DNA from: Acidimicrobiales bacterium
GTDB taxonomy: Bacteria; Actinomycetota; Acidimicrobiia; Acidimicrobiales; DATDAH01
Reading direction: 5' to 3'
Assembly: GCA_016794585.1 (NCBI GenBank)
Contig: JAEUJM010000019.1
Coordinates: 1 to 64,000, forward strand
DNA: 64,000 nt
Part shown: in pieces, positions 11,595-27,950 of the stretch
How the letters are laid out: the number at the start of each line of letters is the position of its first letter
Position numbering within the stretch: position 1 is the stretch's first letter
Position numbers and translations under genes: made by a program
Notes under the pieces: model-generated
The model's input: the letters and a program-made list of their open reading frames with translations, nothing else
What the model was told of the DNA's origin: nothing
Database searches by the model: none

Positions 11595-11629
11595 TGTCAC
11601 TGTTTGTATCAGTGATAGTATCAGTGACA
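11595..11629. promoter_or_regulatory. Operator-like repeats between the T4CP-like and MerR genes
   Basis: GTATCAGTGA occurs twice in direct orientation (11606-11615 and 11618-11627, 12-bp period). The flanks TGTCACTG (11595-11602) and CAGTGACA (11622-11629) form an 8-bp inverted repeat. The array ends on the MerR start codon, as expected for an autoregulated leaderless or short-leader gene. Confidence 0.65.
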
Positions 11630-12354
11630 TGACTGATCCGCTTTTCGGCATCGAGGAACTGGTCGCCCGGGCCGACGCCCGGGTGGCCGCCTCCGGCATC
11701 GAGGCCCCCAACGGCCAGGTGGCCGAGGCCCTCACCGTCCGCAACGTCCGCTACTACGCCACCCTCGGCCTGCTGGCCCCCCCGGCGGCACGGCGGGGAC
11801 GCAACGCCCTCTACGACGACACCCACGTCGACCAGCTCGTCGCCGTCAAGCGACTCCAGGGCGACGGCCTCCAGCTTGCAGAGATCCAGCGGGCCCTCGT
11901 GGGACTGGCACCAGAGGAGGTCGCCCGGGTCGCCGCCGGAGGGTCCGGCTCGACCGAGCGCTTCTGGGCGGCTCGCGCCACGACGTCCCACGCCCCCACG
12001 GACGAATCCGTCGCGGCGGAGGAGGCGGCACCCCTGGCGGCGGCCCGAGCCGTCGCACCGCCGGCCGGCTTCCTGGCGCCGTCCTCCACGCCGGCCCTCG
12101 CCCCGGACACCACCCGAGGCACTGCCTCGGTCACGCCGGCGCCGTACCCCACGGCAACCGTCTTCCCCCTCGGCGAGGGTGTCGCACTCCAGGTGCCCAC
12201 CGGCCTCGCCCTGTCCTCGGCGGCGGCCACCCGCGTCCTCGACGCCGCCCGCGCCGTGCTGCTGCCCACCGCCGCCCCCGACAACCCTGACGCCCCCCTC
12301 CACCCCCTGATCGCGCCGAAGACCGGCCCGCACAACCAGGAGTCCCGCCGATGA
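11629..12354 (+). CDS. MerR-family transcriptional regulator with long C-terminal extension
   Basis: A 241-residue protein. Residues about 32-95 form a MerR winged-helix domain: TVRNVRYYATLGLLAPP, GRNALYDDTHVDQL, LQLAEIQRALVGL. The C-terminal ~140 residues are Ala/Pro/Thr-rich with no metal-binding cysteines, so it is unlikely to be a metal sensor. A KVFPLGEGVALQV-like segment (TVFPLGEGVALQVPTGLAL, about 182-200) may be a small effector domain. The ATG lies at the end of the repeat array. Its stop overlaps the next ATG by 4 bp (ATGA), so it is the first gene of an operon with the VIT/vWA and probably the AAA+ gene. Confidence 0.85.
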   Translation: MTDPLFGIEELVARADARVAASGIEAPNGQVAEALTVRNVRYYATLGLLAPPAARRGRNALYDDTHVDQLVAVKRLQGDGLQLAEIQRALVGLAPEEVARVAAGGSGSTERFWAARATTSHAPTDESVAAEEAAPLAAARAVAPPAGFLAPSSTPALAPDTTRGTASVTPAPYPTATVFPLGEGVALQVPTGLALSSAAATRVLDAARAVLLPTAAPDNPDAPLHPLIAPKTGPHNQESRR

Positions 12355-14798
12355 CCCACCTCCGACTCGCCCCCACGCTCGCCCCCGAGCCCGATGCCGA
12401 CGCCGGCCTCGGCGCCCTCACCACCGAGGTGCCCGGCCTCGACAACCTCGCCCTCGAGGCCCTCGACGTCACGGTCGCGGCCCACGGCCTGCTCGCGGAC
12501 ACCACCGTGGTCCAGCGCTTCCGCAACCACCACGACCGCGCCATCGAGGTCACCTACGTCTTCCCGCTCCCCGCTCGCGCCGCGGTGGTCTCGTTCACCG
12601 CCCGGCTCGGCGACCGGGTCGTCACCGGCGTGCTGAAGGAGCGGGGCGAGGCACGCGCCGACTACGACCGGGCGCTCGCCCAGGGCCGCCGCGCCGCCAT
12701 CGTCGAGGAGGAGCGGCCCGAGGTGTTCACCTGCCGGGTCGGCAACATCGGTGCGGGCGAGACCGCAGAGGTGACCCTCGCACTGGTGGCCCCTCTGCCG
12801 CACGAGGACGGCGGCGTGACCGTCCGGGTACCCCTCGTGGTGGCACCGCGGTACGTGCCGGGGACCCCCCTCGACGGGGAGTCCGTTGGCGCCGGCTGGG
12901 GCCCGGACACCGATGCCGCCCCGGACGGCTCGCGCGTGACGCCACCGGTGCTGCTGCCGGGCTTCCCCGAGCCGATCGCCCTCTCGTTGGCGGTCACGGT
13001 CGATCCGGCGGGGCTGCCCCTCGGCGAGCTCGCCTCGTCGTTGCACGCGGTCACCCGCACCACGGGCGACGACGGCGCCGTGCGCGTCGAGGTCGACCCC
13101 GGCGAGCGCGTCGACCGCGACTTCGTGCTGCGCTACGACCTCGCCGTCACCGAGGTCGAGGCCGCCGCGACCGTGAGCCCCGATCCGGCCGACGTTGACG
13201 CCGAGGCCGACGCCGACGCCGACGCCGCCACGGTCTCGATCACCGTGGTGGGCCCGCCGCCCACGGGGGACGTGACCCCGCGTGACGTCGTGGTGCTGCT
13301 CGACCGGTCGGGCTCGATGGGAGGCTGGAAGATCGTCGCCGCCCGGCGGGCCGCCGGCCGCCTCGTCGACGCCCTCGGCCCCGGCGACCGCTTCGCTCTG
13401 CTGGCCTTCGACCACGAGTGCGAGGCGTTCGGCGACGGCACACTCACCGACGCAACGGATCGCAACCGGTGGCGAGCCGGCGAGTGGGCCGCACGGCTCG
13501 ACGCCCGGGGCGGCACCGAGCTGCTCGACCCGCTCCAGCGCGCCGTGGCCCTGCTCGACCGGACCGCCGACGAGCCCGCCGGCGCCGACCGCGAGCGCAT
13601 CGTGCTCCTGGTCACCGACGGTCAGGTCGCCAACGAGGGCCAGCTCGTGGCCACGGTCGCCGACCGGCCCGTCCGTCTCTTCTCGGTGGGCATCGACCGG
13701 GCCGTCAACGCCGGCCTGCTCGAGCGCCTGGCCCGTACGACCGGGGGTCGCGCCGACCTGGTCGAGTCCGAGGACCGCCTCGACGAGGCCCTCGCCGGCC
13801 TCCGACGCCGCCTGGCCCCGCCCCTGCTCAGCGATCTCACCATCGACGGGCCGGGGATCGACCCCACCTCGCTGGCGTCGGTCACCGGGCTCGACCTGCA
13901 CGAGGGCGTCCCCCTCGTCGCCCACGCTCGGCGAGCGTCGGGCGCCACCGGTGCCGTCACCGTGCGGGCCCGCCGCCGGGACGGCTCCGCCTGGACCCGG
14001 GTGCTCACCCTTACCCCTGGCCCGGCGTCGGCCCGGAGCCTCTGGGGCAAGGCCCGTCTGCGAGACCTCGAGGACCGCTACGAGGCGCACGGCGGCGACA
14101 CCCGGCCGATCGTCGACTTGTCCCTCACCACCGGCGTGCTGTGTCGCTTCACCGCGTTCGTGGCCGAGTCCCCGGACGGCCCGGTCGACGCCGACGGCGC
14201 CCCGCTGACGATCGTGCAGCCCGTCTCGTTCCCGTCGGGCTGGTCCCCCGACGCGCTGGGGATCGCCCCGGCGATGGCGGCGCCGGCGTCGTTCGCGATG
14301 GCCCCGCCGCCACCCATGGCCGTCGGGCCCGCCGACGATGCCTACTACGGGCTCGGGCCGGACGACGGCGCCCAGGGGATCCTCGCTCCCCAGCAGTGGC
14401 ACCAGCAGGAGCAGGCGGCGCCGTCGCGCCCAGGTCTGCGGATTCCCGGCAAGGGGGTCGTCCGTCCCGCCGGTGGGCGGGCTCGTCCTCCGCGAGCTGC
14501 GCGACCCGGTCCGTTCTGGTCGCAGCGCCCCGCCGGCACGCCCTCGACGCCGCCCGCCGACGGCTCCCTGGCCTCCCGGGTCCGCGACCTGCTGCGCGCG
14601 GTCGAGCACCCTGCGGCCGACCTCGCAACCCTCGCCGTCCGTGCCCGCGCCCTCGCCGCCGAGGCCCGTGGTGCCGCCGACGACTGCCTGGCGCGGGCGC
14701 TCGACGACCTCGCCGTGGTGCTGGACGCAGGCGACACGGGCGGTGTCGCCACGGCCTGCGAACGGGTCCGCCGGGGCCTCGTCCCCGCGGGCGCCTGA
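12351..14798 (+). CDS. VIT domain and von Willebrand A domain protein
   Basis: An 815-residue protein without a signal peptide. The N-terminal VIT domain (about 30-165) has VVQRFRNHHDRAIEVTYVFPLP, KERGEARADYDRAL and RVGNIGAGE. The vWA domain (about 310-480) has an intact metal site DRSGSMGG (D318, S320, S322) and VLLVTDGQV. A Pro/Gly/Ala-rich region (about 630-735) precedes a helical C-terminal segment. The pairing resembles eukaryotic inter-alpha-trypsin inhibitor heavy chains and bacterial VIT-vWA proteins, thought to act in metal-dependent protein assemblies. It is translationally coupled to the MerR gene and followed 125 bp later by the AAA+ gene. A vWA plus AAA+ pair often forms a remodelling or chaperone complex. 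The DADADADA stretch (about 284-292) is a codon-repeat linker. Confidence 0.9.
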   Translation: MTHLRLAPTLAPEPDADAGLGALTTEVPGLDNLALEALDVTVAAHGLLADTTVVQRFRNHHDRAIEVTYVFPLPARAAVVSFTARLGDRVVTGVLKERGEARADYDRALAQGRRAAIVEEERPEVFTCRVGNIGAGETAEVTLALVAPLPHEDGGVTVRVPLVVAPRYVPGTPLDGESVGAGWGPDTDAAPDGSRVTPPVLLPGFPEPIALSLAVTVDPAGLPLGELASSLHAVTRTTGDDGAVRVEVDPGERVDRDFVLRYDLAVTEVEAAATVSPDPADVDAEADADADAATVSITVVGPPPTGDVTPRDVVVLLDRSGSMGGWKIVAARRAAGRLVDALGPGDRFALLAFDHECEAFGDGTLTDATDRNRWRAGEWAARLDARGGTELLDPLQRAVALLDRTADEPAGADRERIVLLVTDGQVANEGQLVATVADRPVRLFSVGIDRAVNAGLLERLARTTGGRADLVESEDRLDEALAGLRRRLAPPLLSDLTIDGPGIDPTSLASVTGLDLHEGVPLVAHARRASGATGAVTVRARRRDGSAWTRVLTLTPGPASARSLWGKARLRDLEDRYEAHGGDTRPIVDLSLTTGVLCRFTAFVAESPDGPVDADGAPLTIVQPVSFPSGWSPDALGIAPAMAAPASFAMAPPPPMAVGPADDAYYGLGPDDGAQGILAPQQWHQQEQAAPSRPGLRIPGKGVVRPAGGRARPPRAARPGPFWSQRPAGTPSTPPADGSLASRVRDLLRAVEHPAADLATLAVRARALAAEARGAADDCLARALDDLAVVLDAGDTGGVATACERVRRGLVPAGA

Positions 14799-14923: not shown

Positions 14924-16687
14924 ATGAGCATGGCGTTGCACGACGACGAAGGGGGCGCCGCGGTCGCCGACGACACGCTCCCTGCCGGCTGGCCGGCCCA
15001 CTGGCCCCCACCCGACGGCACCGCGGACGTCGTCGAGCCCCGCGCCGCTCTCGGGCTCGGCGAGCTGACCACGTCCGCGGCTTCGCTCCTCGCCCTCTCG
15101 ACCCCGGCGACCCCCTGCCTCATCGGTCCACGCGGGTCGGGGCGGAGCACCGCGCTCGGCGCGCTGGCCGCGCTCATCGAGGAGGACGGCGCCGTCGACG
15201 TCCTCGCCGGCCGACCGGTCGTGCGCATCCGGGCCGAAGCCGTCCTGGGTCGGGCCCGAGGCAACACCTTGCGCCACATCCGCGGCTTCGCCGCGCTGCG
15301 GGGCATCCTCGCCCTCGACGACCTCGAGGTGCTGCTCGGCCTGTCCTCGCCCGCGGTCGACCTCGACCTGCGGGGCGTGGTCCGGTCCTTGATCGCCCAG
15401 CCCGACGTGCTCACCATCGCCACGCTCGACGAGTCCTACGCGGGCCGCCTCCAGACCGAGGAGCCCGAGCTCTTCTCGCAGCTCGAGCGCCTGTCGATGC
15501 CCGTCCCCACCCACCACCAGTTGCTCGAGATCGGCACCGAGCACTGCCGACGCCTCGCAGCGCACCATCGGATGGCCGAGATCACGCCGTCGACGATCGA
15601 GGCCTCTGCGGCACCGCCCGGCCCTGGCGACGACCTCGCCCACCCCGGCCTGCTGGTGGCCCGCCTGGACCGGGCGTGCATCCGCGCCCGGATCCGGCGC
15701 ACCGACACCGTCGGCCCGCGCGACCTGCCCCGCCCCGACGCCACGCCGACCTGGCAGGTGGTCCAGGCCGACGAGCTCACCGCGCGACTGGGAGAGCACC
15801 TCGTCGGCCAGGACGACGCCATCGAGCGAGTGGTGCGGCGCATCAGCCTCACCACCGCCGGCCTCGATCTCTCCCCCCACCGACCCAACGGCGTGTTCCT
15901 GCTCGTGGGCCCGACCGGTGTCGGCAAGACCGAGCTGGCCAAGGCGCTCGCCGACGAGGTGTTCGGCGGCGACGACCTGCTCATCCGCCTCGACATGAGC
16001 GAGTACGCCGAGGACTGGGCCATCAGTCGGCTGTTCGGGCCCCACCCCGGCTACAAGGGGTCCGACGAGCCGGAGGGCTGGTTCACCTCCAAGGTGCTGG
16101 CCAAGCCGACGTCGGTGGTGCTCCTCGACGAGGTGGAGAAGGCCCACCCCACGGTGTGGAACGTGTTCCTCCAGGTGTTCGACGACGGCCGCCTCACCGA
16201 CTCCCGGGGCCGGACCGCGTCCTTCGCCGACACCGTCGTGATCATGACCTCGAACCTCGGTGCCCGTGCCTTCTCCGCCAACCCCGTGGGCTTCGGTGGC
16301 GGCGGCAATGGCGGGAGCGGCGCCGGCCTCGCCGACGCCGAGGCCGAGGTGCGCGCCGCCGTCGAGCGCACCCTTCCCCCCGAGCTCGTCAACCGCATCG
16401 ACGAGATCGTCCTGTTCCGCCCCCTGACGCCCGACGCCATCACGGAGATCGCCCGCCGCCGCCTCGCCCGGGTCACCGCCGACCTCGCCCCACAGGGCTG
16501 GGACCTCACGTTCGATCCCGCCGTCGTCGACCTCCTCGCCACCGAGGGCTACGACCCCACCTACGGCGCCCGCCACCTCGACCGCAACATCGAGCGCCAC
16601 GTGCTGGAGGCGCTGGTGGGGCGCCCGGCGGGCGCTTGGCGGGCGTCGATCGGCGACGACGGTGCGGTGGTGTGGACCGAGGCCTGA
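14924..16687 (+). CDS. ClpA/ClpB-like double AAA+ ATPase lacking the Clp N-domain
   Basis: A 587-residue protein with two AAA+ modules. The first (about 45-235) is small, with Walker A GPRGSGRST (68-76) and Walker B ILALDDLEVLLG (128-139), and resembles the ClpA D1 module. The second (about 285-580) is a full Clp D2 type: VGPTGVGKTELAKALAD (328-344), FLLV before it, VVLLDEVEKAHPTVWN (398-413), SNLGAR, and a C-terminal D2-small domain (ITEIARRRLARV, YDPTYGARHLDRNIERHV). There is no Clp repeat N-domain and no obvious IGF/L ClpP loop, so it probably works without ClpP, with the upstream VIT/vWA protein as likely partner. ATG 14924 follows a purine-rich GGAAGCGGGAG ribosome site; ATG 14930 is an alternative. 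It converges on the TIR gene 30 bp later. Confidence 0.88.
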   Translation: MSMALHDDEGGAAVADDTLPAGWPAHWPPPDGTADVVEPRAALGLGELTTSAASLLALSTPATPCLIGPRGSGRSTALGALAALIEEDGAVDVLAGRPVVRIRAEAVLGRARGNTLRHIRGFAALRGILALDDLEVLLGLSSPAVDLDLRGVVRSLIAQPDVLTIATLDESYAGRLQTEEPELFSQLERLSMPVPTHHQLLEIGTEHCRRLAAHHRMAEITPSTIEASAAPPGPGDDLAHPGLLVARLDRACIRARIRRTDTVGPRDLPRPDATPTWQVVQADELTARLGEHLVGQDDAIERVVRRISLTTAGLDLSPHRPNGVFLLVGPTGVGKTELAKALADEVFGGDDLLIRLDMSEYAEDWAISRLFGPHPGYKGSDEPEGWFTSKVLAKPTSVVLLDEVEKAHPTVWNVFLQVFDDGRLTDSRGRTASFADTVVIMTSNLGARAFSANPVGFGGGGNGGSGAGLADAEAEVRAAVERTLPPELVNRIDEIVLFRPLTPDAITEIARRRLARVTADLAPQGWDLTFDPAVVDLLATEGYDPTYGARHLDRNIERHVLEALVGRPAGAWRASIGDDGAVVWTEA

Positions 16688-16717: not shown

Positions 16718-19480
16718 TCAGCCGGACGGGTCGAGGGGGTGCCCGTCGAGCTGCACCCTGGTCAGGTCGAGCCCCGCACCCTTCCCGAGCTTGATCGCAC
16801 CCTGGAAGGGCTTGTTGGCCTTGTCGCGCAGGAACTTCTGACCGATGTCCAGGAACTGCGTGTCGACGAGGGCGGCCTCGCCGGTCTTGCCCACCTCGAG
16901 CCCGAAGCCCTCGGCCTGCTCGATCCGGCAGTCCTCCATGTGCAGCGTGCAGCCCTTGCCGACGCCGACGGCGGCCCGCACCACGTCACCGCACGCCACG
17001 AGCTGGCACCCGACGATGCGACCCGTCACCCGACCGAGCACCACGGCGGTGCTCCCCATCCGGATGCCCTCGTGGCGCGAGCCCTCGATCGTCGTGCGGG
17101 CCACGTCGAGTCGCTCGCCCGACTTCGCGTCGACGGCCACGTCCGAGACGGACCGGAACCGGGTGTCCTCGACGGTCAACGTCCTGCCCTCGACCCCGGT
17201 CCCGACGTCGTGGACCTCGCTGTCGCGGACGTGGACCGCCGCCTTCGGGGCGCTGACGCCGACGACCGAGCCGGTGCCCGATCCGGAGAGATCGCAGCGG
17301 TCGACCAGCAAGTCGCCGCCGAGGACCTCGACGACGGGACCGTCCTTCTTGCCCTGACGGACGAGCACGAGGCCCTCCAGCGCGCAACCGGTGCCGTTGA
17401 CCACGACACACGCGGCGTTCTCCGCGGTGACGACCACGCTTCCTGGGGCGGCCTCGGCGATGATACGCACGCCCGGGTGGTTCACCACGACCGTCCCCGG
17501 GTACTGCCCGGGCGCGACGACCACCGTCGTCTCCTCGACCGCCACCCGCAGCGCTGCGGCGATGCTCTCGTGGTCGCCGCCTCCGTCCGGCGCGACCCGC
17601 AGGACGGGTCCCTCTGCCGACGGGGGCGCGGCGGTGTCCACCGCCGGTGCCGGGGCGGGCGCCGGCACCCGATCACCGGAGGGAGGCTCGGCGGACGGCA
17701 ACACGGTGGACGGCGGGTCGGCGGACGGCGGGTCGGGGGTGACCCCCGTGGGCGCGTCGACCGAGGGCAGGCCGTGCCGGTCGTCCGGGAGCTCGACGCC
17801 GGCCAGCTCGGCGCTGTCGAGGGCCCGCTCGGCCGAGAGGGTGTCGGCGTGGTCGGGGCCCAGCACCCGGCGGCGTCGCTCGACGACGTCGGCGAAAAGC
17901 GCCTTGGAGCCGACCAGGTCGTTGAGCTGGAAGAGGGTGACCGCCAGGTTGGCGGCCGAATCGAGGGTCTCGGGGTCGTCCGGGCCGAGCACCCGCGCCC
18001 GCCCACTGAGCGAGCGCTGCTCGACCTCACGGGCGCCGGCGAGGTCGCCGCTCTCACGGAGCCAGCATCCGAGGACGAACTGCGCTGCGAACCCGCCCGG
18101 CTCGTCCGGGGTCGCCGCCCAGTCCGCCACCACCGCCCGCTGGACGGCGAGGGCCTCGGCGACGTCCCCCCCGTCGAAGAGGGACAGCGCGAGCGCCTGC
18201 CGGGCGTCGAGGTGCCCGGGCGACCGGGCCCCCTCCTGGCTCCCGGCGACCTCGGCGAGCTCCCGCAGGAGGGGGACGGCCTCGTCGAACTGCGCGAGCG
18301 CGCGCTGGGAGATGACCAGGTTCCTCATGGCGGTCAAGGTGTCGGGATGGGTGTCACCGAGCGTGCGGCGGCGGGCCTCGAGCACCTGCACCTCGAGCGC
18401 CTTGGCCCCGGCGACGTCCCCTTGGCGGTAGAGGAGGTTGGCGAGCTCGACCTGGGTGGCGAGGGTCTCGGCGTGCTGGGGCCCGAGCACCCGCTGTCGA
18501 TCCCCGAGCGTGCGGCGCAGCTCCCGCTCGGCTTCCTCGACCTCGCCCGTGGCGGCCAGCCAGAGCCCGATGTTCGATCGCGCCAAGAGGGTGTGCGGGT
18601 GATCCTCACGCAGGAGGCGGGTGCGCACCTCGAGGACGCCCCGCTCGATGCGGAGCGCCTCGCCGAACTCGTCGGACCGGGCGAGGTCGAGCGCGCGTTG
18701 CTCGGCCTCGTTGGCTGCGTCGAGCTCGCCACCAGCTCGACCGTCCTCCGCCTCGGCCCCGTCGGCTGGGTCGGGCGGCGGGGTGGGGCCACCAGTCGGT
18801 CCTTCGTCAGGGGAATCCGCGGGATCGACCGGACCCAAGGGCGGGTCATGGTCCAGAGCGTCCGGGCCCTCCGGATCGTCCACCGGCGCGGTGGCCGCGG
18901 ACTCGCCGGCCGGCGCCGGCGGGGGCTCGTCGACCGCGGTGGGAGCGACCGCGCTGGTCGCCCCGCTGGCCGTGGCGACCACGTCAGGCGCGGCGCCTGC
19001 GGCCCCCTCTCCGAGCGGCTGCACGACCCGGGCCAGGAGATCCACGAGCACCTTGATCTCGTGGTAGTACGCGGCCGGCGTGAGGGTGAACGCCTGCTTC
19101 TTGGTCAGCCGCTGGAGTGATTCGGGAAGCTCGGCCGCGTCGGGCATGACCGCCCCGTCGATCGTCACCGGGATGACCGGCTTGCCCGAGGCGAGCGCGG
19201 TGGCCACCTCGTAGGCGTGCTTGTCGTTCTCGTCGTGGATGCGGGGGTTCCCCCGCTTGTCCTCGAGGGTGGCCCACCGGGGGCCCACGATGAGCACCAC
19301 GATCGCCGCCTGCTCCACCGTCCGATCGATGGCCTCGTCCCAGTCCGACCCGGGATAGAGCGAATCGAGGTCGAAGAAGACCCGGTCCTTGCCGAAGACG
19401 GGCCACAGCTGGTCGTAGATCCGACCGCTCCAGCCGAGGCTGTCGTCCCGCCGATAGCTGATGAAGATCCCGTCGGTCAT
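16718..19480 (-). CDS. TIR domain - TPR - right-handed beta-helix protein
   Basis: A 920-residue protein with three parts. Residues 1-150 are a TIR domain of the bacterial TIR_2 type: IFISYRRDD (5-13), DSLYPGSDW, IVVLIVGPRW, and HAYEVATAL, where E91 matches the usual catalytic glutamate of NAD-cleaving TIRs. Residues 155-250 are a Pro/Ala/Asp linker. Residues 255-560 are about seven TPR units of the kinesin-light-chain type (LGPQHAETLATQVELANLL, LGDTHPDTLTAMRNL, LGPDDPETLDSAANLA). After a Pro/Ser linker (565-623), residues 624-920 form a pectin-lyase-like beta-helix beginning VLRVAPDGGGDHESIAAAL, with repeated V/I-rich coils. There is no signal peptide, so it is cytoplasmic. The TPR could bind a partner and the helix could sense sugar, cell-wall or phage structure; both are inference. 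Confidence 0.88.
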   Translation of the reverse strand: MTDGIFISYRRDDSLGWSGRIYDQLWPVFGKDRVFFDLDSLYPGSDWDEAIDRTVEQAAIVVLIVGPRWATLEDKRGNPRIHDENDKHAYEVATALASGKPVIPVTIDGAVMPDAAELPESLQRLTKKQAFTLTPAAYYHEIKVLVDLLARVVQPLGEGAAGAAPDVVATASGATSAVAPTAVDEPPPAPAGESAATAPVDDPEGPDALDHDPPLGPVDPADSPDEGPTGGPTPPPDPADGAEAEDGRAGGELDAANEAEQRALDLARSDEFGEALRIERGVLEVRTRLLREDHPHTLLARSNIGLWLAATGEVEEAERELRRTLGDRQRVLGPQHAETLATQVELANLLYRQGDVAGAKALEVQVLEARRRTLGDTHPDTLTAMRNLVISQRALAQFDEAVPLLRELAEVAGSQEGARSPGHLDARQALALSLFDGGDVAEALAVQRAVVADWAATPDEPGGFAAQFVLGCWLRESGDLAGAREVEQRSLSGRARVLGPDDPETLDSAANLAVTLFQLNDLVGSKALFADVVERRRRVLGPDHADTLSAERALDSAELAGVELPDDRHGLPSVDAPTGVTPDPPSADPPSTVLPSAEPPSGDRVPAPAPAPAVDTAAPPSAEGPVLRVAPDGGGDHESIAAALRVAVEETTVVVAPGQYPGTVVVNHPGVRIIAEAAPGSVVVTAENAACVVVNGTGCALEGLVLVRQGKKDGPVVEVLGGDLLVDRCDLSGSGTGSVVGVSAPKAAVHVRDSEVHDVGTGVEGRTLTVEDTRFRSVSDVAVDAKSGERLDVARTTIEGSRHEGIRMGSTAVVLGRVTGRIVGCQLVACGDVVRAAVGVGKGCTLHMEDCRIEQAEGFGLEVGKTGEAALVDTQFLDIGQKFLRDKANKPFQGAIKLGKGAGLDLTRVQLDGHPLDPSG

Positions 19481-19816: not shown

Positions 19817-22800
19817 TTGCCGGGAGACACGCCTGAACTCGACGTTTTCATCCTCCACGCTCCCGATGAGGCGGCAGCCGATCGGGTCCGCCGGCTGCTC
19901 GAGGCAACCGGCCTGTCAGCCCGGACCGCCGGTCCCCCTTCGAGGGGCGAGCCCGATGCCGACCTGGGACGCGCTCTGCGGGTGATCGTCCTGCTTTCCG
20001 AAGGGTTCATCGAGGACCCTGCCTGCCGGAGGTCCTGGGAGGCTGCCTTGGGCGAGGACCGCTTCAACCACGCCGGCCGCGTCGTGCTCCTCCGGGTCGA
20101 CGGGTGCGACCCCGCCGGAGTCTTCAGCCAGTACGCCTGGCGGGAGGTGGGACCACTCGAGCTCCTCGACGACGTGTCGCTGACCGAGATCCTTGCGAAG
20201 GCGGCCTCCGGCAGCATCGCGGCACCCGACAACGATTACGTGGACCGGTACGACGTCTTCCTCAGCCGGGCCGGCAAGGAGAGCGAGATGGCGCAGCGCT
20301 TCGCGCGGTGCCTCCAGCAGGCGGGGCTCCGTGTGTTCCTCCAGAACTGGCACATGCAGGACCGCAACTTCATGGAGCGGATCGACTTCGGCCTGAGCCA
20401 CTCGGACCGGGTCCTGGCCCTGCTCTCGCACGACTACGTCGCCAGCGACTACTGCAAGATGGAGTGGAGCCAGGTGACCAAGGGAGAACCGCTCCACGAG
20501 TCGCGCCGCTTGGTCGTCCTGCGGGTCGACGACTGCCAACCGGTGGGGCTGCTCGCCACGGCGCCCCGGTGGGATCTCCGGGGCTTGACGGATCTGGACG
20601 ACGACGACCTGACGAGCATCCTGCTCGATGCCGCATCCGGCACGACCTCCCCGCTGGAGGCGAACCTCGGCTACCTCGAGCACCCTCCGCCGATCGTGAG
20701 CGACGAGGTGCGGCGGAGCGCGGTGCACTTCACCGGACGCGAGGACAACCTCGCCGCCCTCCACCGTGCGCTCGCCCCCGAGACGGTGCCGCCGTTCACC
20801 GCCCCTGTCGTCATCCACGGCATGGGAGGCGCAGGCAAGTCGACCCTCGCCCGCGAGTACGCCAGCCGTCACGAGGACGCCTATGCCGGCATCTGGTGGT
20901 TCAACGCCGAGATGGACCGCCTGCTGAGCACGTTCCCCGAGGTGGAGAGCGGCTTCGAGCACCTGGGCCGCACCCACTTCTTCGGGCCATCGCTGTCCGG
21001 TGACGTCAGCCTCGCCGCCCGCCGCGTGTACGACTTCCTGAGGCGGGAGTGCCGGGCCGGCGCGCCAGCGAAGCCGTGGCTCTTCGTCTTCGACAACGCC
21101 GACGACGAGGCCCTTCACCCCTGGCTGCAGTGGAAGGGCTCACACGCCCAGGTACTCCTCACCACCCAGGCCGAGTCCGTCTGCAACCTGGGCGAGCACG
21201 TCGTCGACCTGGCGGAGTGGGCCCTGCCCGACGCCCACCGGTTCCTCCAGCGAGCGTGCTCGCGCCGAAACCTGACCGAAGACGAGCTGCACGAGCTGAC
21301 CGATGCGATCGGCTGTCTCCCCCTCCCGCTCTCGCACGCCGCGGCCACGATCCGCGAGGACAGCTTCCTCACCGTCGACGAGTACGTCGCGCGCCTCACC
21401 ACGATGATGAACCTCGTCCCGTCGGGGTCCGACTACGGCAAGGCCGTGTTCGCCACCTTCCAGGAGGCGATCGCGAAGGCCGAGCAGCAAGTGCCCGGGT
21501 GTCGGGCGCTGATGTCCTTCATCGCCTGTCTCGGAGCCGACGGCATCCCTCTCTCGGTACTCGAGGCCCCCGTCGGGACCTACCCCGAGCCACTCCGGCC
21601 CGTCATCGCCGCCGGGACCGGTCGTACCGCCCTGGCCAAGCTGGCCGACCTCTCGCTCGTGCGGCCGGCATCCGACCGCCGCACCTTCTCGGTGCACCGC
21701 ATGGTGCAGCTGGTCGCCCGCGATCTTCTGGGCGAAGACCTCCCGAGCTGGCGGCGGCACGCGGTCGAGGTCGTGAGCTCCCTGTTCCCCGCGTTCGACC
21801 CGAGTGACTACTCGATCTACCTGATCACCCCGGACGAACGCGACCGGGCCGCCGTCCTCGAACCGCACGTGGACGACGTGCTCGCGGCGACGGCCGAGGA
21901 GGTGTTCCCGTCGAGGGTCCAGCTCCTGCTCGACTTCGCCGTCCACCTCGGCGTGACCGGCCGTTCCGGTGTTGCCCTCCCGCTCGTGGGAGACGCCCTC
22001 GCCGGCTGGGCGTCGGTCGGGATCGGCGGCGATCCGATCCGAGACGCCAGGGCCCACCTCGCCGCGGCATGGGTGGCTCGTCGCAACTCGAAGATGGCCG
22101 AGGCCCGGATCGCCGTCGACCGGGCGATCGCGATCCTCGAGAGCGTGGCCGAGGCGGAGCGGCGCGACCGGACGCTCGCGGCCGCCCTGACCGAATCGGG
22201 AGCCCTGTGCTGGCAACACGAGGATGGCACCGGCGCCGTCGAGGCCCTCACGAGCGCCCAACGCCTGCTGGCCGAAGCGGGCCTCGACCGGAGCCCCGAG
22301 TACGGCGCCGCGTGCAACTACCTGGGTCAGGTGCTCTACGACCAGGAGCGATTCGACGACTCCCTGGCCGCACACGAGCTCGACGGAGAGATCTGCGCCG
22401 AGCACTTCGAGGCCGACCACCCCCGCCGTCTCGTCCCGCTCCACAACGGCGCCTGGGCGAGGCTCGAGCTGGGTGAGGCCGAGCGGGCCCACCAGGACTT
22501 CCTGTTCGACCTCGACGCCTCGACGCGGTTGCTCGGCGCCGACCATCCACAGACGGCGTTCTCACACGAGGGCATCGGTGACGCTGGCAGCCGGCTGGCC
22601 GCCCAGCAGAACGATCCGGCGCTCCGACGGGACCAGTTCGACCGGGCACAGCACCACCTCGAGCGCGCCGTCGCGCTCTTCGAGCAGGAGTCCGCCTCGC
22701 TCGGCTCGGACTCGGCGGCGTCGGTCGACCTCGGCGATGCACTCCAGGCCCTGGGGGACCATCACCAACGGGCCGGCGAGACGGCCGAGGCCCGCTCCGC

Positions 22801-22906
22801 GTTCACGCGTGCCGCGGCGATCTTCTCGCAGACCGGGCGCGACGACTCCCCTCGGCGCAACTACTGCCTGGAGCGCCTCGACGAGCTCGCCGAACCCACG
22901 ACGTGA
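19817..22906 (+). CDS. Tandem TIR - NB-ARC (STAND) - TPR protein, NLR-like
   Basis: A 1029-residue protein. Two TIR domains sit in tandem. TIR-1 (about 8-130) has LDVFILHA and CRRSWEAAL (E75). TIR-2 (about 144-275) has YDVFLSRAGKE and SDYCKMEWSQV (E216, the typical catalytic-glutamate helix). An NB-ARC ATPase follows: P-loop GMGGAGKST (335-343), Walker B WLFVFDNADD (421-430), VLLTT sensor (446-450) and GCLPLPLSHA (499-508, the GLPLA-like motif). A winged-helix region contains HRMVQLVARDLL, and TPR units fill about 690-1015 (LGADHPQTAFSHEGIGDAG). This is the plan of plant and bacterial NLR immune switches: the TPR senses, the NB-ARC oligomerises, the TIRs act, probably on NAD+. Start is a TTG with GGGGAG 5 nt upstream. 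Antiphage function is inference. Confidence 0.92.
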   Translation: MPGDTPELDVFILHAPDEAAADRVRRLLEATGLSARTAGPPSRGEPDADLGRALRVIVLLSEGFIEDPACRRSWEAALGEDRFNHAGRVVLLRVDGCDPAGVFSQYAWREVGPLELLDDVSLTEILAKAASGSIAAPDNDYVDRYDVFLSRAGKESEMAQRFARCLQQAGLRVFLQNWHMQDRNFMERIDFGLSHSDRVLALLSHDYVASDYCKMEWSQVTKGEPLHESRRLVVLRVDDCQPVGLLATAPRWDLRGLTDLDDDDLTSILLDAASGTTSPLEANLGYLEHPPPIVSDEVRRSAVHFTGREDNLAALHRALAPETVPPFTAPVVIHGMGGAGKSTLAREYASRHEDAYAGIWWFNAEMDRLLSTFPEVESGFEHLGRTHFFGPSLSGDVSLAARRVYDFLRRECRAGAPAKPWLFVFDNADDEALHPWLQWKGSHAQVLLTTQAESVCNLGEHVVDLAEWALPDAHRFLQRACSRRNLTEDELHELTDAIGCLPLPLSHAAATIREDSFLTVDEYVARLTTMMNLVPSGSDYGKAVFATFQEAIAKAEQQVPGCRALMSFIACLGADGIPLSVLEAPVGTYPEPLRPVIAAGTGRTALAKLADLSLVRPASDRRTFSVHRMVQLVARDLLGEDLPSWRRHAVEVVSSLFPAFDPSDYSIYLITPDERDRAAVLEPHVDDVLAATAEEVFPSRVQLLLDFAVHLGVTGRSGVALPLVGDALAGWASVGIGGDPIRDARAHLAAAWVARRNSKMAEARIAVDRAIAILESVAEAERRDRTLAAALTESGALCWQHEDGTGAVEALTSAQRLLAEAGLDRSPEYGAACNYLGQVLYDQERFDDSLAAHELDGEICAEHFEADHPRRLVPLHNGAWARLELGEAERAHQDFLFDLDASTRLLGADHPQTAFSHEGIGDAGSRLAAQQNDPALRRDQFDRAQHHLERAVALFEQESASLGSDSAASVDLGDALQALGDHHQRAGETAEARSAFTRAAAIFSQTGRDDSPRRNYCLERLDELAEPTT

Positions 22907-22950: not shown

Positions 22951-24075
22951 TCAGGGCGCCGCCGGGAGGAAGCCGTCGAGGTGGGCGATGTCGACGATGC
23001 GCTCTGCCATCGCGGCGCCGACCGCGCCCAGCACGTCGAGGTGCGCCACCGAGTCCAGGGGGAGGACCTGCTCCACGGCCACGTCCACGAATCCGAGTGC
23101 ATCGAGGTTGGCCCGGGTCAGGTCGAGGTCGTACCTCACGTAGGTGAACAGCGGGTCGGCCAGCAGTCGGTCCCCGCCGCGCAGGTCTCCGACCTCCAGG
23201 TCGATCGGCGGGCCCGCCCGACAGTCGCCGAGCAGGCGGCACAGCATGTCCTGTTGCGTCGCCGCCGACCCGAGGAGCGCGCCCATCGCCGACACCACCT
23301 GGTTGAGCACGTGCAGGTCGTGGGCCTCGAGGTCGGGTCGCGGGCGTTCGGCACTCCCCGTGCCCACGGAGACGAGCAGGAGCTCGTCGACCCCGGTCGA
23401 CCACCCCAGTCGGTACGCGGGCGCGGTGGCCATCACGAACAGCTGGAGCGCCGGGTTGTTGAACGGGGTGATCCCGCCATCGACGAAGACGAACTCGTTG
23501 CCGCCGAGACGCACCGTCTCGGGAGGGAAGTAGATCGGGGCGGCGGTGCTGGCCCGCACGAGCTGCCACAGGGGCAGATCGAGGTTGCAGTCGGGCAGGG
23601 CCCGGTCGTTGAACATCGCCGCCGGGTTGTTGCTGAGCGGCCAGGGCGAGTCGGTGGTGGCGTTGCGCAACACGACCAGGAGCAATGTGCGGAGGTCCTC
23701 GCTGCCGAGCGTGGTGTCGGCGCCGAGCTCGTCGCGGAGGATCGCGGCCAGCGGCTCGTCGTCGTAGAGGTGACGGACCCGATCGCGCAGGCGGGCCCGA
23801 TCGAACATCTCCGCCCCGCGCTCGAGGTAGAGCGTCCGCAGCCGCTGCGTGTCGAACCCCAACGCGAGGCCTGTGGCGATGATGGCGCCGGTGCTCGTCC
23901 CCCCGATGTAGTCGAAGGCGTCGGCCAGCACGAGGTCGGCGCGGCCGGTCGCCTCCCGGAGGTCGCCTTCGAGCTTGGCCAGGATCTCGAGGCTGAGGAT
24001 CCCTCGGATGCCGCCTCCGTCGAGCGCGAGGAGGCGCTTCGGCCCGGGTGCGTGGATGCGGTCGCGGTACGTCAT
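22951..24075 (-). CDS. Patatin-like phospholipase
   Basis: A 374-residue cytosolic lipase. The oxyanion-hole motif DGGGIRG is at 19-25, the nucleophile elbow GTSTG at 59-63 (Ser61), and the catalytic aspartate in VDGG at 198-201 (Asp199), giving a complete Ser/Asp dyad. LLVSVGTGS is another conserved patatin segment. The family cleaves membrane phospholipids, and patatins such as CapV serve as cell-killing effectors in CBASS. Here no nucleotide cyclase is nearby; instead the gene is the second of an operon behind the TrkA-N/RyR gene (52 bp apart, ATG with GGAGGAGG upstream). It converges on the TIR-NB-ARC gene. The effector role is inference from family and neighbours. Confidence 0.93.
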   Translation of the reverse strand: MTYRDRIHAPGPKRLLALDGGGIRGILSLEILAKLEGDLREATGRADLVLADAFDYIGGTSTGAIIATGLALGFDTQRLRTLYLERGAEMFDRARLRDRVRHLYDDEPLAAILRDELGADTTLGSEDLRTLLLVVLRNATTDSPWPLSNNPAAMFNDRALPDCNLDLPLWQLVRASTAAPIYFPPETVRLGGNEFVFVDGGITPFNNPALQLFVMATAPAYRLGWSTGVDELLLVSVGTGSAERPRPDLEAHDLHVLNQVVSAMGALLGSAATQQDMLCRLLGDCRAGPPIDLEVGDLRGGDRLLADPLFTYVRYDLDLTRANLDALGFVDVAVEQVLPLDSVAHLDVLGAVGAAMAERIVDIAHLDGFLPAAP

Positions 24076-24127: not shown

Positions 24128-25861
24128 TCAACCCGCCCGCACGATGCGCAGGCCCACGCGGGCCAGCACCTCGGGGATGTCCCGGATGGCCTCGCGGTCG
24201 TACTCCTGGATCTCCGGCGGGACCTTGTTCCACGGCACCATGTAGGGCGACGTCTTCACGACCGGATCCTTCGGACCCGGTGCGTAACGCCAACCGTTGC
24301 GGGCCATGTCGGCGGTCCATCGGTCGTGCTCGGCCGGAGCGAGACCGTCCACCTCGGCGGCCGTGAACTCGAAGCCGCCGGTGTCGCCGAACCGAGCCGG
24401 CACCAGCTCGCATCCGACGAGGCGGAGCTTCACGCCGATGTGGCGGGCGAGGTCGCGGTTGGACTCGCGGAGCGACTCCTCGAGCTCCTCCCAGGGCACG
24501 GTCGAGGGGTTCGACGAGGGGTCCTGACCCTCGGCGAGGCGCCGCGACACGTAGTGGCCGTGGAAGGCGCGCGCCAGCGTCTCCATCGCCGAGTCCTCGA
24601 TCTGACCCCGGTTGCACAGCGCCGCCACAAGCGCGACGACCTGGAGGCGTTCGCCGGCCTTCTCGACCTCGCCGAGCAGACCGGTCAGCGCCGCCGTGCG
24701 GGTCAGGCACGCCACCACCTGCACGCCTGCGGGGAGTTGGGCGTCGAGCGACAGCGCCGTCGCGAGCGTGGCCTCGTCGGTGTCCAGGCGCACGTAGACG
24801 TCTCGGACCGCGTCGACACCCTCGACCGCATCGACCCGGAACTCGTGCGCGTCGACGTCGGCGGCGCCGATCCGCAGTCGGTCGCCGAGGTCGCCCAGCT
24901 GCCACGCCACCTCGGCGAGCTCGGCCTCCGCCCCCTTCCCCACGAGGGTCACCGACACCGCCCCCTCTGCGACCCCGCGATCCTCACCCGCGAGCGCCAG
25001 CTTCGCGAGGAACCCGTCCCAGAGGTCGTCGACGCCGACGAGCCAGATCGAACCGCTCCGTCCGCCGTCGAGGTGTGGTGGGTAGCGGTCGAGCAGCAGC
25101 TGGGCCCCGCTCACGGACAGGGAGAAGAAGTCGATCCGGGCCCCGGGCGCGTCAGAGCGTCGGAACTGGCGCAGCCGAAGCAGGTTCGCGAGGTCGCCGT
25201 CCTCGATGTGCACCAGGCAGCGCAGCACCGAGCCCTGCCGGCCCGCCGACAGCTCCATCGCCCGCACGGCGACCGCCGCGTTCACGTCGTCGCTCGGGCC
25301 GACCGCGACGAGGTCGCGCGCCCGGTCGACGCCGGCGGCCACCAGCACGTCGGGGTCACGGGCGTCGCCGGTCATGGTGTGGATGCCCAGCCGCCGGCAC
25401 GCCTCGAGGTTGGTGCCCTTCGGCTCGAGGTCGATCACCAGCACGGACGCGCCTTGGGTGCGAGCCGACTCCGCGAAGCCGAATCCCTTGTCGCCGAGAC
25501 CGACCACGATGACGTGGCCCTTCAGGAACCCGGCCCGCATGGCCATGAGCCGGTCGTGGAAGGCGGCGTAGAGGCCGAACAACGCGGTGAAGCCGAGGGC
25601 GAGCGGCAGCAGGAAGCGGGCGACGCCGAGGTACCAGTTGTTGGTGGTCGAGGGCCCGCTCCAGAACGTGACCATCCCGAAGTCGGCGTACACGACGTCG
25701 ACCCAGCCCCAGGTGGGCTCCTGCTTGCGCCACCCGATGAGCCCGAGCCCCGCGCCGACCACGATGAGCGCACCGAGGAGCAGCCACTGGTGGCGACGCA
25801 GCCACCGCAGCACCGGATCACCACGTCGTACCTTCGGCACCTCCGCCGGCGTCGTCGTCAC
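24128..25861 (-). CDS. Membrane protein with TrkA-N (RCK-like) Rossmann domain and C-terminal RyR domain
   Basis: A 577-residue protein. Two N-terminal hydrophobic helices (about 26-44 and 78-99) flank an aromatic stretch (VYADFGMVTFWSGPSTTNNW) that could be a pore or extracytoplasmic loop. From 115 a TrkA-N fold begins HVIVVGLGDKGFGF with strand-2 acid VLVIDLEPKG, a probable NAD(H)-binding site. A second Rossmann-like region follows from about 285 (SIWLVGVDDLWDGFL, VSVTLVGKG). The last 67 residues match the ryanodine-receptor RyR repeat: EHDRWTADMARNGWRY, DPVVKTSP, YMVPW, EIQEYDREAIRDIPEVL. RyR domains are also found in predicted prokaryotic conflict systems. GTG start at 25861 with GGGAGGGGG upstream. 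First gene of an operon with the patatin; a ligand-gated channel or NAD sensor is inferred. Confidence 0.83.
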   Translation of the reverse strand: MTTTPAEVPKVRRGDPVLRWLRRHQWLLLGALIVVGAGLGLIGWRKQEPTWGWVDVVYADFGMVTFWSGPSTTNNWYLGVARFLLPLALGFTALFGLYAAFHDRLMAMRAGFLKGHVIVVGLGDKGFGFAESARTQGASVLVIDLEPKGTNLEACRRLGIHTMTGDARDPDVLVAAGVDRARDLVAVGPSDDVNAAVAVRAMELSAGRQGSVLRCLVHIEDGDLANLLRLRQFRRSDAPGARIDFFSLSVSGAQLLLDRYPPHLDGGRSGSIWLVGVDDLWDGFLAKLALAGEDRGVAEGAVSVTLVGKGAEAELAEVAWQLGDLGDRLRIGAADVDAHEFRVDAVEGVDAVRDVYVRLDTDEATLATALSLDAQLPAGVQVVACLTRTAALTGLLGEVEKAGERLQVVALVAALCNRGQIEDSAMETLARAFHGHYVSRRLAEGQDPSSNPSTVPWEELEESLRESNRDLARHIGVKLRLVGCELVPARFGDTGGFEFTAAEVDGLAPAEHDRWTADMARNGWRYAPGPKDPVVKTSPYMVPWNKVPPEIQEYDREAIRDIPEVLARVGLRIVRAG

Positions 25862-25907: not shown

Positions 25908-27950
25908 TCAGGCGGAGCGCCGGCGGCCGCCGCGACCCTGGACGAGGGCCCGGCGCTGCTCGATGAAGTCGACCAGGACGTAGTCGCCGAGGGTGTCGGG
26001 GCTGGTGAAGAAGGCCCGGCCCTTGTTCAGGCGGGTGAGCTGCTCGATGAAGTGCTTGAGGCCGCGGTCGGCGTCGAGCATGAAGGTGTTGATGCGGATG
26101 CCCTCGCGGGTGAGGCGGGCGACCTCGGTGAGGGTGGCGTCGACGGTCTCGCGCACTGGCGGGTAGTTGAAGAACACCTCGCCGTTCTCGCGCAGGTGGG
26201 CGGTGGGCTCACCGTCGGTGATCATGATGATCTGCTTCGTACCGGTCTGGCGGGCGAGCTTGCGACGGGCGATCTGGAAGCCGTGCTGCATGTTGGTGCC
26301 GTAGACGAAGTCCCACGACACCTCGGGCAGCTGCTCGGGGGTGAGGTCGCGGGCGATCTCGCTGAAGCCCACGAGCCCCAGGTAGTCGCGGGGGTAGTTG
26401 GTGGAGATCAGCGAGTGCAGGGCCATGGCCACCTTCTTGGCGGCCAGGAAGTTGTCCCGCATGGGCATCGAGAGGGAGAGGTCGATCATCAGCACGGTGC
26501 TGGTGCGCACCAGGTGCTCGGTCTCCTCGACCTCGAAGTCGTCGGGGGTGAGGCGCACCGGCGTGCCGCCGCCGGTGCGGCGGATGGCGTTGCGGACCGT
26601 GCGCTCGATGCTCAGGTTGAAGGGGTCACCGAACTCGTAGGGCTTGGTGTCGTAGGTGCGCTCGTGGCCCGTGCCCTTGCGCTCGAGCTCGTGGCGGCCC
26701 ATCTGACTGCGGGACAGGTGCTTGAACAGGTCGTTGAGGGCGTTGGCGCCGACGCGGCGCAGGCCCCGGGGCGTGAGCTCGAGGCGACCCTCCTTGTTCT
26801 CGACCAGACCCGCCTCCTCGAGCATGCGGGCCAGCTCCTGGATGCGCTCGAGGCTCTCGGCCGACTGCTCGCCGAGCAGGTCGCGCACCTTGTCGATGTC
26901 GGCCTCGGCGAGTGCGCCGGGGTTGGTGGCGCCCCGCAGCAGGTTCTCGAGCTGGTCGATGTCGCCCAGCTCTCCCATCATCTCGGCCGCCTCGGCGAAG
27001 CCGAGTGGGTCCTGGCCGCTGAAGTTGTACTGCTTGTCCCAGCCGGCGTTGGGGAACGCGTTGCGCAGGTTCTCGGCCAGTTGGTCGGCCTGCCAGCGCA
27101 GGTCCATGTCCTCGAGCAACTGCTCGGACAGGCTCTGGAGCTGCGCCCGCTGCTCGGGCGTCATCGAGTTGAGCATCGCCTGCATGGCCGCCATGCGCTG
27201 GGCCATCACCTCGAGCAGCTCGTCGAGGGTCTCGGGGTTCTCGGGGAAGAAGTCGCCGAAGCGCTCCATGAACCCCTCGAAGTCGGGCGTCTCGCCGCGC
27301 TCGCGCTGCTCGAGCATCTGGTTGAGCTCGGCCATCATGTCCTTCATGCGGGCCATGTCCTCGGGGGACATGTCGTTCATGGCCCCGGTCATCTGGTCCA
27401 CGTAGCGCTGCATGAGCTGCTGGCGCAGCTGGTCGACCAGCTCGTCGAAGCGCTCACGGGCCTCTGACGACGTGAACTCGTACTCCTGGAGCTCACGGAC
27501 CTGGCCGGCGAGGTCGGGGGGGAGCATGTCGAGCTGGAGGTTGCGCTCCATGGCGACCTGGTCGGTGAGCTCCTGGCGGCGGGCGTCGCCCGACTCGCGG
27601 GCCTCGCGCTGGAGGTCCTCGATGCCGCCCCGCTCCATCTCGACGACCTCGCGCAGCTCTTCGGCGATGTCGTCGTAGACGCCCCCGAGGTCATGCTGCT
27701 CGAGGGTCTCCTTGCGGCGCCGGCGCAGCTTCTCGAGCATGTCGCGCACGCCCTCCATGCGCTCGCCGTTGCGGTCGCGGAACCCGGACTGCATCATCCG
27801 CCGCAGCGCGGCGTTGAGGTCGCCGTGGTAGAGCAGGTCGTCGGTGATCTCGGAGAACACGTCGTCGGCGTCGAGCTCGAAGCCCACCTGGGTGCCGTCC
27901 CACCGCGAGTAGGCGAAGCGGGGAGCGGGGGCCTTGCGCCGGCGGAGCAC
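25908..27950 (-). CDS. von Willebrand A domain protein, CoxE/ChlD-like
   Basis: A 680-residue soluble protein. The first ~360 residues are long, charged and Met/Glu/Leu-rich, probably coiled-coil (REVVEMERGGIEDLQRE, MARMKDMMAELNQMLEQRE). The C-terminal vWA domain holds VLMIDLSLSMPMRD, a metal site with Asp500, then DYLGLVGFSE and IIMITDGEPTAH. This architecture usually partners a MoxR/ChlI-type AAA+ ATPase, and such a gene lies 6 kb away at 33662-35065 on the same strand. Start is a GTG at 27950, 6 nt after a TAGCCT box. It is 46 bp upstream-adjacent to the TrkA-N/RyR gene on the same strand, so read-through into that operon is possible. Confidence 0.88.
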   Translation of the reverse strand: MLRRRKAPAPRFAYSRWDGTQVGFELDADDVFSEITDDLLYHGDLNAALRRMMQSGFRDRNGERMEGVRDMLEKLRRRRKETLEQHDLGGVYDDIAEELREVVEMERGGIEDLQREARESGDARRQELTDQVAMERNLQLDMLPPDLAGQVRELQEYEFTSSEARERFDELVDQLRQQLMQRYVDQMTGAMNDMSPEDMARMKDMMAELNQMLEQRERGETPDFEGFMERFGDFFPENPETLDELLEVMAQRMAAMQAMLNSMTPEQRAQLQSLSEQLLEDMDLRWQADQLAENLRNAFPNAGWDKQYNFSGQDPLGFAEAAEMMGELGDIDQLENLLRGATNPGALAEADIDKVRDLLGEQSAESLERIQELARMLEEAGLVENKEGRLELTPRGLRRVGANALNDLFKHLSRSQMGRHELERKGTGHERTYDTKPYEFGDPFNLSIERTVRNAIRRTGGGTPVRLTPDDFEVEETEHLVRTSTVLMIDLSLSMPMRDNFLAAKKVAMALHSLISTNYPRDYLGLVGFSEIARDLTPEQLPEVSWDFVYGTNMQHGFQIARRKLARQTGTKQIIMITDGEPTAHLRENGEVFFNYPPVRETVDATLTEVARLTREGIRINTFMLDADRGLKHFIEQLTRLNKGRAFFTSPDTLGDYVLVDFIEQRRALVQGRGGRRRSA

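What the first reader, a model, noticed from the sequence alone, without database searches (positions are those of the whole stretch)
16718..19480. TIR - TPR - beta-helix architecture
An N-terminal TIR with a probable catalytic glutamate (E91) is joined to about seven kinesin-light-chain-type TPRs and then a 300-residue pectin-lyase-like beta-helix. Beta-helices usually bind or cut carbohydrate or form phage tailspikes; coupling one to a cytoplasmic TIR suggests a sensor for glycan or a phage structural protein. I know TIR-TPR proteins but not this triple combination.
Basis: partly seen in the sequence, partly recalled or inferred. Interest (0 to 1): 0.78.

Follow-up and report, generated by a model that had tools for sequence, protein, structure and literature searches.

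The report
TIR enzyme with TPR and beta-helix
An actinobacterium-like genome encodes a predicted NAD-cleaving immune-type enzyme (TIR) joined to two protein-docking modules, a TPR superhelix and a pectin-lyase-shaped beta-helix; this looks like one more variation on the known "TIR effector plus swappable sensor" plan, using a sensor fold I could not find described with TIR before.

Summary
Window 16718-19480 (minus strand) is one 920-aa ORF. It carries TIR_2 (residues 5-114), seven kinesin-light-chain-type TPRs (about 256-558) and a right-handed beta-helix (about 624-885). The fold is backed by an HMM built without this protein (92 bits, 0/200 shuffles) and by AlphaFold2 with a small alignment (pTM 0.79); all top Foldseek PDB hits are right-handed beta-helices. 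E91 aligns with SARM1's catalytic Glu and is invariant in 27/27 related TIRs.

New here: the same genome holds a second TIR + beta-helix gene without TPRs. No other genome, plasmid, phage or viral contig searched showed TIR and beta-helix in one frame. Same-order TIRs carry other C-terminal modules instead (PQQ, WD40 and NHL propellers, PASTA, TPR, SIR2, STAND).

The beta-helix's best-matching sequence relatives are intracellular helices fused to EccA/CbbX-type AAA proteins, where TPRs and beta-helices are proposed substrate-recruiting modules. No carbohydrate-enzyme motif or phage sequence homologue was found, so the glycan/phage-structure idea is not supported.

Most likely a stand-alone TIR NADase gated by a protein-binding TPR/beta-helix receptor, working like SpbK or Swarozyc. 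Activity, ligand and any defence role are inferred. Verdict: new variant of a known kind.

The parts
16718..19480 (-). whole gene, 920-aa TIR-TPR-beta-helix protein (P0001)
   Evidence: ORF, ATG start, coding composition
19031..19480 (-). TIR domain, residues 1-150
   Evidence: Pfam TIR_2 42 bits; SARM1 TIRs E 1e-6
19208..19210 (-). codon of E91, putative catalytic glutamate
   Evidence: aligns with SARM1 Glu; Glu in 27/27 related TIRs
18716..19030 (-). Ala/Pro/Asp-rich linker, residues 151-255, no transmembrane-like stretch
   Evidence: sequence; the best 19-residue hydrophobic window of the whole protein is 1.78, at residue 689 inside the beta-helix
17807..18715 (-). about seven 42-residue kinesin-light-chain-type TPRs, residues 256-558
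   Evidence: TPR_10 144 bits, TPR_12 111 bits; FxSxx_TPR 158 bits, below its cut-off 300; PDB kinesin light chains
17612..17806 (-). Pro-rich linker, residues 559-623
   Evidence: sequence
16721..17611 (-). right-handed parallel beta-helix, residues 624-920 (confident to about 885; last ~35 residues uncertain)
   Evidence: HMM without this protein 92 bits; AF2 pTM 0.79; Foldseek PDB/BFVD

Best explanation
A stand-alone, cytoplasmic sensor-effector protein. The N-terminal TIR is a NAD+-cleaving enzyme using E91, held inactive. The C-terminal half, a TPR superhelix plus a pectin-lyase-fold beta-helix, is a two-part surface that binds a protein ligand. Binding clusters the TIR domains, which assemble into an active NADase; NAD+ falls and the cell stops growing or dies, most plausibly in response to a phage or similar intruder. 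SHOWN by computation: the domains, the fold and the conserved Glu. INFERRED: the NADase activity, the cytoplasmic location (no signal or membrane stretch), a protein rather than sugar ligand, activation by clustering, and the defence role.
For: TIR resembles SARM1 NADase TIRs with the catalytic Glu kept. In same-order genomes the same TIR cassette sits in front of many unlike binding or signalling modules: PQQ and WD40 propellers, NHL propeller, PASTA, TPR, SIR2, AAA/STAND, the pattern expected of a constant effector with swapped receptors. The same genome has a second TIR + beta-helix protein without TPRs (TIRs pair at 86/87 support), lying among metabolic genes, so TIR + beta-helix is a recurring unit that needs no fixed partner operon. 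The beta-helix relatives are N-terminal parts of EccA/CbbX-clade AAA proteins; in that clade TPRs and a beta-helix are described as alternative N-terminal modules thought to recruit substrate (PMC10659427). Single TIR proteins with an extra domain that binds phage portal are known: SpbK (PMC12847820) and the TIR-like Swarozyc (PMC13174449). Neighbours include TIR-TIR-NB-ARC-TPR, a CBASS-lipase-like patatin and RyR-domain genes.
Against: No biochemical or phage data. PADLOC and NCBIfam give only weak matches to defence TIRs. No orthologue was found, so neither the gene neighbourhood nor the beta-helix surface could be tested for conservation. Base composition is like the rest of the window, so there is no sign of a recently acquired island. 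The paralogue reads with a frameshift in the assembly.
Confidence: 0.5

Rival explanations
1. The TIR is an adaptor, or makes a signal nucleotide, and works with the neighbouring genes: the divergent TIR-TIR-NB-ARC-TPR protein and the patatin would be partner and executioner, with this protein as receptor.
For: The divergent TIR-NB-ARC-TPR start lies about 340 bp away and a CBASS-lipase-like patatin follows it; TIR-AP-ATPase-TPR effectors occur with TPR-bearing partners in vWA systems (PMC7159879).
Against: The paralogue sits among metabolic genes with no such neighbours; the genes are on opposite strands, not in one operon; no relative with the neighbourhood was found; the catalytic Glu is kept.
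Confidence: 0.2
2. The beta-helix is a glycan sensor: it binds capsule, cell-wall or phage-processed sugar and the TIR reports it.
For: The fold is that of pectin methylesterases, PL6 lyases and epimerases.
Against: No catalytic motif of those enzymes; no secretion signal or membrane stretch, so the helix should be cytoplasmic; best-matching sequence relatives are intracellular AAA fusions.
Confidence: 0.1
3. Part of envelope or type VII secretion quality control rather than defence: like EccA-type beta-helix proteins, it monitors secretion substrates and the TIR answers to stress.
For: Strong sequence kinship with beta-helix-AAA proteins encoded next to eccC and S8 protease genes in Streptomyces.
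Against: No AAA domain in this protein and no eccC/eccB-like gene among the neighbours that were scanned; the paralogue's neighbours are metabolic.
Confidence: 0.12
4. The beta-helix was taken from a phage tailspike and acts as a decoy or as a receptor for phage tail parts.
For: Foldseek finds many phage beta-helix proteins.
Against: No sequence match of the beta-helix in 50,697 phage genomes, in PHROGs or in IMG/VR scans apart from one Streptomyces-type AAA fusion; the structural matches are generic to the fold.
Confidence: 0.05

Closest known systems
SpbK and Swarozyc (DUF4062): single-protein TIR NADases with a domain that binds phage portal
   Same: TIR-type effector with a conserved Glu plus a separate binding domain in one protein
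   Different: Sensor part is TPR + beta-helix; ligand unknown; activity not tested
Actinobacterial TIR-TPR proteins (TIR group 6 of PMC7075850; FxSxx-system TIR/TPR proteins)
   Same: N-terminal TIR with many C-terminal TPRs; the TPR stretch is closest to FxsT (158 bits)
   Different: TIR motifs are FISYRR and DSLYPG, not RDFFVSY and WDAVPG of group 6; no NB-ARC; extra beta-helix; below the FxSxx_TPR cut-off
Beta-helix + EccA/CbbX-type AAA proteins of Streptomyces (type VII secretion loci)
   Same: Homologous beta-helix, intracellular, fused to a signalling or motor domain; TPR and beta-helix are the alternative binding modules of that clade
   Different: TIR instead of AAA; TPR and beta-helix both present in one chain; no T7SS genes seen nearby
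TIR + propeller / PASTA / TPR / SIR2 / STAND proteins in the same order
   Same: Same TIR cassette with the conserved Glu, variable C-terminal module
   Different: Several have a membrane-like stretch after the TIR; none of those read has a beta-helix

Membership tests
TIR domain, NADase type | TIR fold with catalytic Glu aligned to SARM1 E642 | tested here: met
   Pfam TIR_2 over cut-off; alignment to SARM1; Glu 27/27
TIR domain, NADase type | hydrolyses NAD+ | not testable with these tools
   needs an enzyme assay
Right-handed beta-helix (pectin-lyase-like) fold | parallel coils of short strands | tested here: met
   AF2 pTM 0.79; Foldseek top hits all beta-helices; HMM 92 bits
Carbohydrate-active beta-helix enzymes | family catalytic motifs (PME, pectate lyase, polygalacturonase, epimerase) | tested here: not met
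   regular-expression check, none found
Phage tailspike/tail fibre | sequence match to phage structural families | tested here: not met
   no beta-helix match in phages or PHROGs
FxSxx-COOH system TPR protein (NF040586) | score above 300 bits | tested here: not met
   157.9 bits over the TPR part only
Actinobacterial TIR group 6 (TIR-TPR) | RDFFVSY and WDAVPG motifs | tested here: not met
   sequence has GIFISYRR and DSLYPGSDW
Thoeris (ThsB/ThcB4) | score above family cut-off and ThsA-type partner next door | tested here: not met
   27 bits against cut-off 220; no SIR2/SLOG or Macro partner among the neighbours scanned
vWA-MoxR ternary conflict systems | MoxR AAA + vWA pair plus VMAP or another third component | tested here: not met
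   neighbours are VIT-VWA and a ClpB-D2-type AAA; no MoxR-family hit
Beta-helix-EccA/CbbX AAA proteins | EccA/CbbX-type AAA domain in the same chain | tested here: not met
   no AAA in P0001; the beta-helix part is homologous
Anti-phage defence system | protects a host from phage | not testable with these tools
   needs a phage challenge

The most novel reading that the evidence does not exclude
TIR + beta-helix proteins are a new class of intracellular immune receptor in which a pectin-lyase-type beta-helix, a fold known for sugars and phage spikes, has become the ligand-recognising solenoid in place of LRR, TPR or WD40, with TPR-bearing and TPR-free versions in one genome.
Probability: 0.28. 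Interest if true: 0.65.

Novelty: new variant of a known kind. Interest (0 to 1): 0.42.

Why it matters
TIR NADases are widespread death effectors in immunity, and what tells them apart is the sensor fused to them. A cytoplasmic beta-helix as that sensor would add a new recognition fold to innate-immune-type receptors and would tie it to the beta-helix and TPR modules of EccA-type AAA chaperones. The finding is testable with one gene and a point mutant.

Tried and rejected
Single-sequence AlphaFold2 of the beta-helix failed (pLDDT 36) and was not used. A tree of the beta-helix did not resolve whether the two TIR + beta-helix proteins share one fusion event. Scans of viral contigs gave no TIR + beta-helix relative; one found a Streptomyces-type AAA fusion (L055). 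The genome-contig scan used only two TIR-derived patterns and found four TIR proteins without a beta-helix. Rejected: carbohydrate-active enzyme, phage tailspike, FxSxx TPR protein, Thoeris, vWA-MoxR ternary member (see membership test).

Full report
OBSERVATION. The ORF at 16718-19480 (minus) runs 920 aa from an ATG with coding-type codon composition. Pfam finds TIR_2 at 5-114 over its cut-off, TPR_10/TPR_12 with high scores across about 270-556, and Beta_helix at 725-868 just under its cut-off (27.1 bits, over the cut-off, when searched as a genome). E91 is present. In the alignment with SARM1 TIR structures it falls on the Glu of 'HKEIVTAL', which from general knowledge is the catalytic E642. 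It is Glu in all 27 TIRs aligned.

BETA-HELIX. Because the Pfam score was marginal I tested it three ways. (1) An HMM built only from other proteins (the paralogue, a same-order protein, five actinobacterial homologues) hits residues 627-880 at 92 bits while none of 200 shuffled versions was reported; a model from the five actinobacterial homologues alone gives 67 bits. (2) The family profile, which includes this protein as one of eight rows, hits pectinesterases, a phage tail fibre, epimerases and NosD in the PDB by sequence. (3) AlphaFold2 failed on the single sequence but with four rows from one relative gave pLDDT 77.8 and pTM 0.79. The 50 PDB entries listed by Foldseek are right-handed beta-helix proteins such as pectin methylesterases, PL6 lyases, Pel9A, AlgE and tailspikes. 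The last ~35 residues are not confidently modelled.

DISTRIBUTION. In the window's own genome there is a second TIR + beta-helix gene, G000:C15 (L020:7541 onward), with no TPRs between the two domains. It carries the conserved Glu; its beta-helix is broken by a frameshift in the assembly, which I report but did not mend. The TIRs of the two genes pair in a tree with moderate support (86/87), the paralogue being on a long branch; their beta-helices do not resolve. No other genome showed both domains in one frame among 59 same-order relatives, 248 same-order genomes, 395 same-class genomes (beta-helix profile only, frames of the three other hits not scanned for TIR) or 397 same-phylum genomes. 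Plasmids, phages and viral contigs also gave none. These searches score few candidates per genome, and the scan of 85,000 genomes used only two peptide patterns, so 'rare' is supported but 'unique' is not shown. Papers searched gave no description of the combination.

THE THEME. Same-order genomes carry the same TIR cassette before other modules: PQQ propeller (L056), WD40 propeller (L058), NHL propeller (L026), PASTA (L022), TPR (L059), SIR2 (L063), AAA_16/STAND (L057). Several have a membrane-like stretch after the TIR by inspection; the window protein has no transmembrane-like stretch. This is a modular effector with exchangeable C-terminal parts.

THE BETA-HELIX'S RELATIVES. The relatives found by sequence are Streptomyces 'right-handed parallel beta-helix repeat-containing proteins', which carry two EccA/CbbX-type AAA domains and lie beside eccC and S8 protease genes; L064 in the same order has one AAA domain. 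Deinococcus has SH3 + beta-helix proteins, one with a weak kinase-like match. [quoted passage not shown] The window protein carries both module types behind a TIR. This, the lack of any carbohydrate-enzyme motif and the lack of phage sequence relatives favour protein binding over glycan or tailspike functions.

NEIGHBOURHOOD. The gene stands alone on its strand, converging with a ClpB-D2-like AAA gene preceded by VIT-VWA, and diverging from a TIR-TIR-NB-ARC-TPR gene followed by patatin and TrkA-N/RyR genes. This smells of conflict systems, but no named system passes its cut-off and no relative allowed a test of conservation. The paralogue lies between luciferase-like monooxygenase, AMP-ligase, methyltransferase and phosphofructokinase genes, which argues that TIR + beta-helix proteins work alone.

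MECHANISM. Most likely (0.5) a cytoplasmic one-protein receptor-enzyme: ligand binding by TPR + beta-helix clusters the TIRs, which cleave NAD+. This is how SpbK and Swarozyc are reported to work with other sensor domains (PMC12847820, PMC13174449). The domain facts are shown; activity, ligand and defence role are inferred.

VERDICT. A new variant of the TIR-plus-sensor kind, interest 0.42.

Noticed in passing
L020:7541-10140 (G000:C15): Second TIR + beta-helix gene in the same genome, without TPRs; frameshift in the beta-helix in the assembly, the other frame continuing the helix.
   Followed up: partly
window 19817-22906 (+): TIR-TIR-NB-ARC-TPR protein resembling the FxSxx-system TPR protein (204 bits, below cut-off 300) but with two TIR domains at its N-terminus.
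   Followed up: partly
window 12351-14798 and 14924-16687 (+): VIT-VWA gene followed by an AAA protein with only ClpB-D2-type ATPase match; a vWA + AAA pair without MoxR, preceded by a MerR-type regulator (11629-12354).
   Followed up: no
window 22951-24075 (-): Patatin phospholipase related to CBASS lipase (111 bits, below cut-off 200).
   Followed up: no
window 24128-25861 (-): TrkA-N domain joined to an RyR domain, beside a VWA protein (25908-27950).
   Followed up: no
L022, L026, L056, L057, L058, L059, L063: Same-order genomes fuse one TIR cassette to PASTA, NHL, PQQ, AAA/STAND, WD40, TPR and SIR2 modules.
   Followed up: partly
L021:2090-3568 (-): Beta-helix-only 493-aa protein with near-perfect repeats (248 bits to Beta_helix), same N-terminal cap motif as the window protein.
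   Followed up: partly
L048:3126-5762 and L050:3195-6059: Deinococcus plasmid proteins with SH3 and beta-helix; the first also has a weak kinase-like match.
   Followed up: no
L055:1418-4804: IMG/VR contig carrying a Streptomyces-type beta-helix + 2xAAA gene, perhaps a host stretch.
   Followed up: no
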